DNA from: Nitrospira sp.
Lineage (GTDB): Bacteria; UBA9089; CG2-30-40-21; SBAY01
NCBI GenBank assembly: GCA_005239945.1
Contig: SBAY01000102.1
Coordinates: forward strand, 1-37,742
DNA: 37,742 nt
Reading direction: 5' to 3'
Part shown: in pieces, positions 7,781 to 32,512 of the stretch
How the letters are laid out: each line of letters starts with the position of its first letter
Numbering within the stretch: the stretch's first letter is position 1
The notes under the pieces: generated by a model
The model's database searches: none
What the model was told of the DNA's origin: nothing
What the model saw: the letters and a program-made list of their open reading frames with translations, nothing else
Program-made: the position numbers and the translations under genes

Positions 7781-7856
7781 GCCACAAAAACACAAAGGCA
7801 CTAAATTTCACTAAAATTTCCTTTTGTGGAATTTTGTGTTTTGGTGATTTTGTGGC
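7781..7856. repeat. palindromic repeat, CACAAAGA (8-mer) family
   Basis: GCCACAAAAACACAAAGGCACTAAA ... TTTTGTGTTTTGGTGATTTTGTGGC. Confidence 0.8.
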
Positions 7857-7984: not shown

Positions 7985-8518
7985 ATGTTTTGTGATATTT
8001 GTCAAAAAGAAGAGGCAACTATATTTTATAAAGAAATGGTTAATAATAAATATACCGAGATGCATCTCTGTAAAAAATGTGCCGGTGAGCAAGAAGTCAA
8101 AAATTTACAGATTCCACCGGCTATCACTAATCTTCTCTCTGCCCTGGCTGAATTAAGTGCTGAGGCTGTACCTAAGGAAATAGCCGAGGAAAAATGCCCT
8201 GGATGTGGCTTTACCTATTCGGATTTTCGCGAAAGAGGAAAATTGGGCTGTTCTCAATGTTATCAATCCTTTAGTGAGCCATTGTCTAATATCCTCCGCA
8301 AGATTCATGGTAATATCCAGCATAGTGGTAAATCGCCTGCTACCCTTCCTACCCCCGCTACCCCTTCTGCTGTGCCGCCTGTCAGGGAAACAGAACTATC
8401 AAAGGAAATTGTAGCCTTACGCCAGGCATTAGAGGCGGCGGTTAAAAAGGAAGAATATGAGGAGGCGGCTAAATTACGAGACCAAATCAAGGCATTAGAA
8501 AAGGAAATTATGAATTAA
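7985..8518 (+). CDS. mcsA: McsA-like zinc-binding protein-arginine kinase activator, UVR motif
   Basis: CDICQKEEA, CKKCAGEQ, CPGCGFTYSDFRERGKLGCSQCYQSF motifs; C-terminal UVR motif EYEEAAKLRDQIKALEKEI; adjacent mcsB and clpC. Confidence 0.93.
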   Translation: MFCDICQKEEATIFYKEMVNNKYTEMHLCKKCAGEQEVKNLQIPPAITNLLSALAELSAEAVPKEIAEEKCPGCGFTYSDFRERGKLGCSQCYQSFSEPLSNILRKIHGNIQHSGKSPATLPTPATPSAVPPVRETELSKEIVALRQALEAAVKKEEYEEAAKLRDQIKALEKEIMN

Positions 8519-8600
8519 AAATTATGAATTAAAAATTAAAAATTGAGAAGTAAGAATTGTTTTCCTCAATTTTTAATTTTTAATTCATAATTTTTAATTA
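8516..8600. repeat. palindromic heptad repeat, family A (ATTAAAA)
   Basis: ATTAAAA ATTATGA ATTAAAA ATTAAAA ATTGAGA ... CTCAATTTTTAATTTTTAATTCATAATTTTTAATT; overlaps the mcsA stop codon. Confidence 0.9.
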
Positions 8601-14917: not shown

Positions 14918-14937
14918 TTTAGTCTCCTTTTTTTAAA

Positions 14938-14972
14938 GAATAGGTCATATAGGACTTATAGGACTTATTCTT
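14938..14972. repeat. 9-mer repeat, family E (TATAGGACT)
   Basis: AATAGGTCATATAGGACTTATAGGACTTATTC; supplies the C-terminus and stop of the S23 ORF. Confidence 0.75.
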
Positions 14973-15523
14973 TCTCTTCCCTTTCTTCGCGATTGATAAA
15001 GCCTTTCCGTGAATCCACCTTCTTCTAAAAATTGTTTTTCTAATTGCCGCAATAACTGGTCAAGCAAATAATTTGCCTGATGAATCAGGCAGATAAGAAC
15101 ATTTGCAGCTACTTCAAGCGAGCTTTGTTCGATATAGGTCTTATAAGTCTTATATGACCTATTCTTCTCCCATGCAAGATTTCTGATTGCTTGAGCCTGT
15201 GGGTGAGATTTATCCCAGAGTATCAATCCTTGCTGTCGCAGAATGTCTTCGTAATCCGCCAGTAGTTCCTCAAGACTTGCACGAGCCACACCCATCAGTT
15301 TTAGCTCGGTTTTCTTTGATGTACCTGATGCCATGCTGCCTTCAGCAATATTTTGTTTGCCACTACGCGATGCCTGTACCATTTGATCATGAGTGCGAGA
15401 ACGCTTGTCAATAAAACGATTACAGAATACCACCGTAGCATCATAAATAATTTCTGTAGTCTGATAAGATTTCAGGTTGCGGTATCCACCATGTGGGGTA
15501 ATCAAGTTTGGTTTTTCATTCAT
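14945..15523 (-). CDS. S23/IVP-type four-helix-bundle protein
   Basis: KSYQTTEIIYDATVVFCNRFIDKRSRTHDQMVQASRSGKQNIAEGSMASGTSKKTELKLMGVARASLEELLADYEDIL resembles the 23S rRNA intervening-sequence protein family. Confidence 0.85.
   Translation of the reverse strand: MNEKPNLITPHGGYRNLKSYQTTEIIYDATVVFCNRFIDKRSRTHDQMVQASRSGKQNIAEGSMASGTSKKTELKLMGVARASLEELLADYEDILRQQGLILWDKSHPQAQAIRNLAWEKNRSYKTYKTYIEQSSLEVAANVLICLIHQANYLLDQLLRQLEKQFLEEGGFTERLYQSRRKGRERISPISPI
15134..15166. repeat. 9-mer repeat, family E inside the S23 coding region
   Basis: TATAGGTCTTATAAGTCTTATATGACCTATTC, encoded as NRSYKTYKTYI on the minus strand. Confidence 0.75.
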
Positions 15524-18801: not shown

Positions 18802-19095
18802 CTTCAATTCAGACATTAGACAATAGACATCCGATATTAGACTTAAGAGAGAAAAATGTTTGATGTCGTAACCGTTCAGGTTGTTTAGGCTATAGGTTGT
18901 AGACTGTTAGCTGTTGAGTATTGATGACCCAAAATCTTCTCGTTTTCCATGTTTTTGAGTTGCAATCAAAACCGTGGTTATCAAATTCCCTGAGTTTCAT
19001 ATCATCTCACATACCTCCGCCCTACAGCCTAAATGCCTACAGTCTATCTACCTGAACGGTTACCTGATGTCTATGGTCTAATGTCTGAATTGAAG
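18802..19095. repeat. palindromic heptad repeat (GACATTA family), split by an inserted element
   Basis: CTTCAATTCAGACATTAGACAATAGACATC ... GATGTCTATGGTCTAATGTCTGAATTGAAG; interrupted at 18868-19063. Confidence 0.85.
18868..19063. mobile_element. non-autonomous MITE-like element, copy 1 (IS66-like ends)
   Basis: GTAACCGTTCAGGT ... ACCTGAACGGTTAC ends; flanks TTGATGTC / CTGATGTC (7/8 match); second copy at 26142-26336. Confidence 0.88.
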
Positions 19096-20428: not shown

Positions 20429-20445
20429 AATCTTACCTCTTATGG

Positions 20446-20513
20446 AATTTTCGATTTTCGATTTTCGATTTTCGATTGAGGATATAAGACCCCTCAATCC
20501 AAAATCCAAAATC
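20446..20513. repeat. palindromic heptad repeat, family D (ATTTTCG)
   Basis: ATTTTCG ATTTTCG ATTTTCG ATTTTCG ATTGAGG ... CCTCAATCCAAAATCCAAAATC. Confidence 0.88.
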
Positions 20514-22856: not shown

Positions 22857-22915
22857 TCAATAATTCCCTCTACCATTTTTAAAATATGAGATATGGATTA
22901 CCTCATCACCATGAA

Positions 22916-23019
22916 TAAAATAGGTTATCACTTATCGGTGATCAGGTTATCGGTAAGGAAAACACAATAATCGGTTGCTTCTAATTACCGATTACTGACT
23001 ACCTGATTACCGACTACCG
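22916..23019. repeat. palindromic heptad/octad repeat, family C
   Basis: GGTTATCACTTATCGGTGATCAGGTTATCGGTAAGG ... ATTACCGATTACTGACTACCTGATTACCGACTACC; supplies the mreC stop codon. Confidence 0.85.
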
Positions 23020-25052: not shown

Positions 25053-25146
25053 AAAAATTAAAAATTATGAATTAAAAATTAAAAATTGAGGAATTACGAA
25101 TTAAAATTCCTCAATTTTTAATTTTTAATTCATAATTTTTAATTTT
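25053..25146. repeat. palindromic heptad repeat, family A (nearly perfect)
   Basis: AAAATTAAAAATTATGAATTAAAAATTAAAAATTGAGGAATT ... AATTCCTCAATTTTTAATTTTTAATTCATAATTTTTAATTTT. Confidence 0.92.
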
Positions 25147-26129: not shown

Positions 26130-26141
26130 CTTTACCTCTAC

Positions 26142-26336
26142 GTCACCGTTCAGGTTGTTTAGGCTATAGGCTGTAGACTGTTAGCTATTGAGTATTGTCC
26201 ACCCAAAATCTTCTCGTTTCCCATGTTTTTGAGTCGTAATCAAAACCGTGGTTATCAAATCCCTGAGTTTCATATCATCTCACATACTTCCGCCCTACAG
26301 CCTGAATGCCTACAGTCTATCTACCTGAACGGTTAC
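26142..26336. mobile_element. non-autonomous MITE-like element, copy 2
   Basis: About 94% identical by eye to 18868-19063; perfect 8-bp direct repeat ACCTCTAC at 26134-26141 and 26337-26344. Confidence 0.92.
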
Positions 26337-26374
26337 ACCTCTACCAGGCAAGCCTGATTGCAGAATAAAATAGG

Positions 26375-26545
26375 GTAACCGTTCACGCCACCAAGACACT
26401 AAGACACCAAGATTACAGAAATAACTGGGGTCTGCTCGTTTGGTAGTTTGTAAATCATATGCCAGTAGACTACCAGGCAACAGACCACCAGCCTACTAAT
26501 TTATTATTCCTTTGTGTCTTTGTGCCTTAGTGGCTGAACGCTTAC
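26375..26545. mobile_element. non-autonomous element with the same terminal 11-mer but a different, CACAAAGA-type body
   Basis: GTAACCGTTCA ... TGAACGCTTAC; perfect 8-bp direct repeat AAAATAGG at 26367-26374 and 26546-26553. Confidence 0.88.
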
Positions 26546-26640
26546 AAAATAGGTTCTCGGTAAGGAAAACGCAATAATCGGTTGTTACCGATTACCTTAT
26601 TCCCTCCTCCCTTACTTCTGACAATACCACATAATAACTA

Positions 26641-26792: not shown

Positions 26793-26812
26793 AAAACAAA
26801 AGGAGGTTGGGT

Positions 26813-26908
26813 AATTAAAAATTATGAATTAAAAATTAAAAATTGAGGAAAGGGAAAATCATAAGTTCTTTTTCCTTTCCTCAATTTTTAATTCATAATT
26901 TTTAATTA
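26813..26908. repeat. palindromic heptad repeat, family A
   Basis: AATTAAAAATTATGAATTAAAAATTAAAAATTGAGGAAAGG ... CCTTTCCTCAATTTTTAATTCATAATTTTTAATT; right arm one heptad shorter. Confidence 0.9.
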
Positions 26909-31120: not shown

Positions 31121-31257
31121 GCCATCAGTTATCAGATTACGATTACAATTTTGGATTTTGGATTTTCGATTTTGGATTAAAGATATTAAGATTCCTCAAT
31201 CCAAAATCGAAAATCCAAAATCCAAAATTTCATTTGGTATTAACTGATAACTAAGGC
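31121..31257. repeat. nested palindromes: family D heptads inside a GTTATCAG-type outer inverted repeat
   Basis: Outer GCCATCAGTTATCAG / AACTGATAACTAAGGC; inner ATTTTGG ATTTTGG ATTTTCG ATTTTGG ATTAAAG ... CCTCAATCCAAAATCGAAAATCCAAAATCCAAAAT. Confidence 0.8.
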
Positions 31258-32392: not shown

Positions 32393-32512
32393 GCCACAAA
32401 AACACAAAGAGAGAGCTTTGAGCCTGGAGCATAGAGCCTGGAGAAAAAAGAATTTCCCTGCTCCGTGCTCTTTGCTCAATGCTAATTCTTTGTGTCTTAG
32501 TGACTTTGTGGC
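32393..32512. repeat. nested palindromes: GAGCNNN heptads inside a CACAAAGA octad palindrome
   Basis: Outer GCCACAAAAACACAAAGA / CTTTGTGTCTTAGTGACTTTGTGGC; inner GAGCCTGGAGCATAGAGCCTGGAG / CTGCTCCGTGCTCTTTGCTC. Confidence 0.85.

What the first reader, a model, noticed from the sequence alone, without database searches (positions are those of the whole stretch)
26363..26600. Third element shares only the 11-bp ends; perfect AAAATAGG duplication and an in-window paralogous empty site
26375-26545 starts GTAACCGTTCA and ends TGAACGCTTAC, but its body is a CACCAAGA/CACAAAGA octad palindrome unlike copies 1 and 2. Flanks are AAAATAGG on both sides. The family C repeat near 22913 reads GAATAAAATAGGTTATC...TCGGTAAGGAAAACACAATAATCGGTTG, matching the sequence expected at 26363-26374 joined to 26554 onward (TTCTCGGTAAGGAAAACGCAATAATCGGTTG), so it approximates an uninterrupted site. 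A palindrome body appears to have been captured between transposase-recognised ends.
Basis: seen in the sequence. Interest (0 to 1): 0.7.

Follow-up and report, generated by a model that had tools for sequence, protein, structure and literature searches.

The report
Hairpin miniature transposon with IS66-type ends
It is a 171-base, gene-free jumping element with the end sequences and 8-base target duplications of IS66-type transposons; it belongs to a large, ordinary-in-principle class of miniature elements that here keep the same 11-base ends across many bacterial phyla while carrying unrelated hairpin-shaped interiors.

Summary
Window 26375-26545 begins GTAACCGTTCA, ends TGAACGCTTAC and is flanked by perfect AAAATAGG repeats. 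In the same genome, 25 of 63 paired-end candidates have perfect 8-bp duplications and 11 more have 7/8. Across genomes of about ten phyla, 51 of 121 have perfect ones (about 0.02 expected); the duplication is exactly 8 bp. A same-genus genome holds a clean empty site, with one TSD copy, for a sister element (not for element 3). The ends belong to single-ORF (ISBst12-group) IS66 transposons: complete IS66 elements carry the same or near-identical ends, some with 8-bp duplications. Element 3 is therefore a non-autonomous IS66 miniature element (MITE). It has a near-full copy at a second site with its own duplication, and relatives with similar octad arms but different centres. Bodies are hairpins even without their ends (median fold z -4.3 across phyla). 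'Capture' of a pre-existing palindrome is plausible, since octad palindromes also occur without these ends, but not shown: no end-less copy with the same centre was found. No IS66 transposase was found in the assembled genome. New member of a known kind; the modular interiors across phyla are the interesting part.

The parts
26367..26374 (+). left target-site duplication AAAATAGG of element 3
26375..26545 (+). element 3: 171-bp IS66-ended miniature element (MITE), hairpin body, no ORF
   Evidence: second copy G000:C89:1106-1275, 92% identical, with its own TSD ACATTTTT
26375..26385 (+). left terminal inverted repeat GTAACCGTTCA
26388..26411 (+). left octad arm CCACCAAG ACACTAAG ACACCAAG
26425..26491 (+). 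inner hairpin (CTGGGGTCTG...CAGACCACCAG); this centre differs from that of the 151-bp octad relatives
26510..26534 (+). right octad arm CTTTGTGTCTTTGTGCCTTAGTGGC
26535..26545 (-). right terminal inverted repeat (GTAAGCGTTCA read on the - strand)
26546..26553 (+). right target-site duplication AAAATAGG
26551..26596 (+). host 'family C' repeat into whose left edge element 3 is inserted; paralogue at 22944-22989
   Evidence: (family D11)
26142..26336 (+). element 2: 195-bp main-family MITE with the same ends, TSD ACCTCTAC (26134-26141 / 26337-26344)
18868..19063 (+). element 1: 196-bp main-family MITE, TSD 7/8 (18860-18867 / 19064-19071)
7781..7856 (+). octad palindrome without IS66-type ends (comparison)
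32402..32512 (+). octad palindrome without IS66-type ends (comparison; left arm weak)

Best explanation
Element 3 is a non-autonomous miniature transposon (MITE) of the IS66 family, ISBst12-type (single transposase ORF, DUF6444 + DDE_Tnp_IS66). An IS66 transposase supplied in trans recognises the 11-bp GTAACCGTTCA ends and inserts the unit with an 8-bp staggered cut, which gives the AAAATAGG repeats. Shown here: ends, exact 8-bp duplications genome-wide and across phyla, a second full-length copy of the same body at another site with its own duplication, an orthologous empty site for a sister element, and complete IS66 transposons with the same or near-identical ends. Inferred: that an IS66 transposase did this in trans in this lineage. 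The interior need only hold two ends apart. It is a hairpin of short-word arms around an exchangeable centre: arms shared with different centres are shown, the exchange mechanism (nested insertion, template switching between arms, or capture) is inferred.
For: Perfect 8-bp TSDs in 25 of 63 own-genome pairs (7/8 in 11 more) and 51 of 121 pairs from other genomes; with flanks re-paired at random a perfect match occurs in 0.4% and 0.014% of pairings. TSD length is exactly 8: the next base matches at only 4-24%. Element 3 body at two sites with different perfect TSDs, AAAATAGG and ACATTTTT. Octad-armed relatives in a related genus with perfect TSDs, lengths 113-240 bp. Clean empty site with a single GCGATTTC in same-genus genome G001 for the sister MITE at C225:405-599. 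IS66 link: exact GTAACCGTTCA in 8 of 30 IS66 (PF03050) loci, in several directly beside the end of the transposase ORF; DUF6444 + DDE_Tnp_IS66 domains; IS66 elements in named records with GTAACTGTTCA/GTAAGCGTTCA + TSD CCAAAATG (Kovacikia minuta), GTAACCGTTCA + CTAAAAAC (Nostoc sp. C057), and an ISKpn15-type element with GGCTGCAT. The main MITE's right end GTAACCGTTCAGGTAGATAGAC resembles the IS66 end in same-family genome G002, GTAACCGTTCAGGTAGGTAGGC. Published ISBst12-group element ISDge4: TIRs GTGACTACTCAGCA/GTAACTGCTCAGCA, 8-bp repeat CCTCGATG, observed transposition (PMC12898284).
Against: No IS66 transposase was found in the window's own assembly: one weak partial PF03050 match in a different protein and no match with an IS66 protein or an IS66 element's DNA. 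The genome is 96.5% complete in 386 contigs, so it may be unassembled. The three IS66 elements with exact GTAACCGTTCA at both ends (L222, L223, L224) lack a TSD; TSD-bearing complete elements have one to three mismatches in at least one end. No orthologous empty site was recovered for element 3 itself: the G001 locus holds a different palindrome there.
Confidence: 0.9

Rival explanations
1. The palindrome is primary: a free-standing octad hairpin was captured between two IS66-type ends, and such ends act as a general cassette that captures hairpins and other DNA.
For: Octad palindromes without the ends occur in the window and elsewhere in the genome. Octads directly abut the ends in several related genomes and in a Nitrospinae bin. 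One 589-bp unit carries a 23S rRNA IVP-like gene between the ends with perfect TSD ATTTTAGG. A MITE-in-MITE composite is present at three places with the same inner junction. More than 70 unrelated body families share the ends.
Against: No end-less palindrome with element 3's centre was found in the genome; end-less matches cover single arms only. Octad arms beside the ends are common in a related genus, so element 3 could simply descend from an octad-armed MITE.
Confidence: 0.3
2. The bodies descend from ordinary IS66 deletion derivatives and merely diverged fast, through slippage of short words and arm-to-arm templated copying, so that only the ends under transposase selection stayed recognisable; no capture is needed.
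For: Bodies are word-iterated hairpins; in some lineages the words resemble the end itself (e.g. CGGTTCAC, CCGTTCA). Element 3 and the 151-bp copies keep their arms but differ in the centre.
Against: Near-identical octad words recur in end-less palindromes and next to the ends in different phyla, which independent divergence alone explains poorly.
Confidence: 0.5
3. The matching flanks are chance and the ends are part of a larger repeat rather than transposon termini.
For: A single 8-bp match beside a repeat could be coincidental.
Against: 51 of 121 elements with perfect 8-bp repeats against about 0.02 expected; orthologous empty site of a sister element.
Confidence: 0.01

Closest known systems
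IS66 family, ISBst12 group (single-ORF; e.g. ISBst12, ISDge4, ISKpn15-like elements)
   Same: GTAA-type tips, GTAAC(C/T)(G/A)(T/C)TCA(G/C) terminal repeats and an 8-bp target duplication; transposase ORF ends beside the same terminal repeat in several IS66 loci
   Different: Element 3 carries no transposase; 171 bp instead of about 1.5-1.8 kb; interior is a hairpin of octads
Bacterial MITEs and mobile insertion cassettes
   Same: short, TIR-bounded, no transposase, multi-copy, TSD matches that of an autonomous family; one relative carries a passenger gene
   Different: unusually many unrelated hairpin interiors behind one conserved 11-bp end, in many phyla
23S rRNA intervening-sequence protein (PF05635) elements
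   Same: an IVP-like gene is the passenger in one IS66-ended unit of this genome (C268)
   Different: element 3 has no gene

Membership tests
IS66 family (ISBst12 group), as non-autonomous derivative | terminal inverted repeats with GTAA tips like those of ISBst12-type elements | tested here: met
   GTAACCGTTCA/GTAAGCGTTCA; the same or 1-3 mismatches in IS66 elements L222, L223, L224, L219, L303, L304; ISDge4 ends similar
IS66 family (ISBst12 group), as non-autonomous derivative | 8-bp target-site duplication | tested here: met
   AAAATAGG perfect; 25/63 own and 51/121 cross-genome perfect; exactly 8 bp; orthologous empty site of a sister element
IS66 family (ISBst12 group), as non-autonomous derivative | IS66 transposase (PF03050) between the same ends somewhere | tested here: met
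   L222, L223 (stop codons in the ORF), L224 with exact ends; L219, L303, L304 with near ends plus TSD
IS66 family (ISBst12 group), as non-autonomous derivative | IS66 transposase in the same genome to act in trans (a condition for present mobility, not for membership) | tested here: not met
   none found in the 386-contig assembly; may be an assembly gap or past loss
MITE | short, non-coding, TIR-bounded, multicopy | tested here: met
   171 bp; no ORF of at least 80 aa overlaps it; 2 near-full copies, octad-armed relatives and dozens of other-bodied units with the same ends
MITE | actual mobilisation by the transposase | not testable with these tools
   needs an experiment

The most novel reading that the evidence does not exclude
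IS66-type 11-bp ends act as a general cassette across bacterial phyla that repeatedly picks up and spreads unrelated hairpin repeats, and occasionally a gene, with exchangeable arms and centres.
Probability: 0.3. Interest if true: 0.65.

Novelty: new member of a known kind. Interest (0 to 1): 0.42.

Why it matters
It ties a large, apparently undescribed set of hairpin repeats to one transposase family, with a defined 11-bp end and an 8-bp duplication, so many 'mystery palindromes' in uncultivated bacteria can be annotated. It also makes testable whether the transposase needs only 11 bp at each end, and how hairpin interiors are swapped.

Tried and rejected
Insertion preference for hairpin loops: several insertions sit inside other palindromes, but joined target flanks are not generally hairpins (own median z -0.65, 11% below -3, against 4% in controls; cross-phylum no difference). 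Own-genome IS66 partner: only a different, partial transposase at C82. Orthologous empty site for element 3: in G001 the intergenic spot carries another palindrome, so no clean test. The first whole-genome paired pattern found nothing because its spacing was too short for elements 1 and 2 and element 3 has one end mismatch. Rfam: no match to element 3; weak matches lie on the neighbouring AT-rich palindrome and are below gathering scores. No paper in the held library discusses GTAACCGTTCA ends; hits were unrelated.

Full report
Observation. The sequence at 26363-26600 reads as described. Element 3 (26375-26545) begins GTAACCGTTCA, ends TGAACGCTTAC and lies between two perfect copies of AAAATAGG. 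Elements 1 and 2 have the same ends with 8-bp flanking repeats of 7/8 and 8/8. Element 3's interior is unlike theirs: two arms of octads around an inner hairpin, folding as one long hairpin (z -5.3).

Genome-wide test. The window is contig C159 of a 2.94-Mb, 386-contig genome. The 11-mer occurs 86 times exactly and 227 times with at most one mismatch, against 56 for the reversed control. All exact places were fetched. Among 63 paired-end candidates (overlapping pairings included), 25 have perfect 8-bp duplications and 11 have 7/8. Random re-pairing of the flanks gives 0.4%, probably inflated by copies that share flanks. The duplication is exactly 8 bp. At least eight kinds of body carry the ends with perfect duplications: the 196-bp main family, a 213-bp family, octad 171 bp, octad 151 bp, two purine-rich units, a GC-rich 341-bp unit, and a 589-bp unit with an IVP-like gene.

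Element 3 as a family. A 92% copy lies at C89:1106-1275 in inverse orientation with its own duplication ACATTTTT. Two 151-bp copies share both arms but have a different centre; one has a perfect duplication, GATTTTTT. In two genomes of a related genus, octad-armed units with these ends are common; six of those examined have perfect duplications, with lengths 113, 172, 172, 196, 236 and 240 bp.

Beyond the phylum. By record title they come from Planctomycetota, Desulfobacterota, Chloroflexota, Nitrospirota, Nitrospinota, Bacteroidota, Omnitrophota, Armatimonadota, Verrucomicrobia, a Lachnoclostridium and others. Of 121 analysable elements, 51 have perfect 8-bp duplications; random pairing predicts 0.014%. 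They fall into 71 body families, 38 with a perfect duplication. Bodies without the ends are strong hairpins: median z -4.3, 62% below -3, against 4% of random controls. One genome of the same order (G007) corresponds to Candidatus Desantisbacteria CG2_30_40_21, which places the window's genome in or near that phylum.

Empty sites. At C225:405-599 a 195-bp MITE is flanked by GCGATTTC; the same-genus genome G001 has this locus uninterrupted with one GCGATTTC. For element 3, G001 lacks elements 2 and 3 and the host repeat, but holds another palindrome in the same gap, and G002 yet another.

Which transposase. IS66 (PF03050) was searched in 27 genomes that carry such units. Of 30 loci, 8 contain the exact 11-mer, in several immediately beyond the transposase ORF's end. 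Three complete candidates have exact ends (L222 1518 bp, L223 1563 bp, L224 1825 bp), without a TSD. Complete IS66 elements with perfect 8-bp duplications have close ends: L219 GTAACTATCCA, Kovacikia minuta GTAACTGTTCA/GTAAGCGTTCA, Nostoc sp. C057 GTAACCGTTCA/GTAATCGACCA, and an ISKpn15-type element GTAAGTATTCA/GTATCTATTCA. The ORFs tested carry DUF6444 and DDE_Tnp_IS66 domains. Published ISDge4, ISBst12 group, has similar ends and an 8-bp repeat (PMC12898284), and IS66 elements of Paracoccus also give 8-bp repeats (PMC3281130). The window's own genome shows no IS66 transposase, so present mobility is unproven.

Mechanism. Shown: ends, exact duplication, multiple copies, one orthologous empty site for a sister element, IS66 partners elsewhere. 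Inferred: action in trans. The interior is modular: similar octad arms with different centres, and end-less octad palindromes in the same genome. Whether hairpins were captured, or inherited and diverged, is open; nested insertion is one visible way of acquiring content (MITE in MITE at C14, C94, C220).

Verdict. A real, well-supported IS66-type MITE; new member of a known kind. The surprising part is the scale and modularity of the interiors.

Noticed in passing
L063:265-853 (G000:C268); second, disrupted copy L081:1048 (G000:C385): A 589-bp unit with the same IS66-type ends and perfect TSD ATTTTAGG carries a 125-aa 23S_rRNA_IVP (PF05635) ORF flanked by its own inverted repeat GAATGTAGAATGTAGAA: a passenger-gene version of the element.
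   Followed up: partly
L006:1501-1922 (C14), L023:1116 onward (C94), L055:1107 onward (C220): A 196-bp MITE is inserted at the same GACTTATA site inside a 213-bp-family MITE at three different outer places, suggesting the composite moved or was copied as a unit (outer TSD 7/8 in one).
   Followed up: partly
window 26130-26640 against G001:C7:5790-5960 and G002:C14 from about 22650: The same intergenic gap holds unrelated word-array palindromes in three related genomes: fast turnover of hairpin repeats at one spot.
   Followed up: partly
window 8513-8599, 14936-15166, 18802-18836/19061-19095, 20442-20482, 25054-25146, 26812-26908, 31147-31229: Many long hairpins made of iterated short words (e.g. 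AATTAAAA, TATAGGACT, TTTCGAT, CAGACATTA) without IS66-type ends; element 1 sits inside one (18802-18836/19061-19095).
   Followed up: no
L064:866-1061 against L272 (G001:C421): At the G001 counterpart of a MITE insertion a lone GTAAGCGTTCAGCCATCAGG end-like sequence remains, possibly a decayed element.
   Followed up: no
L082:1279-2154 (G000:C82): An apparently truncated or frameshifted transposase with a zinc ribbon and a partial, weak IS66-DDE match; not an IS66 element by its ends.
   Followed up: partly
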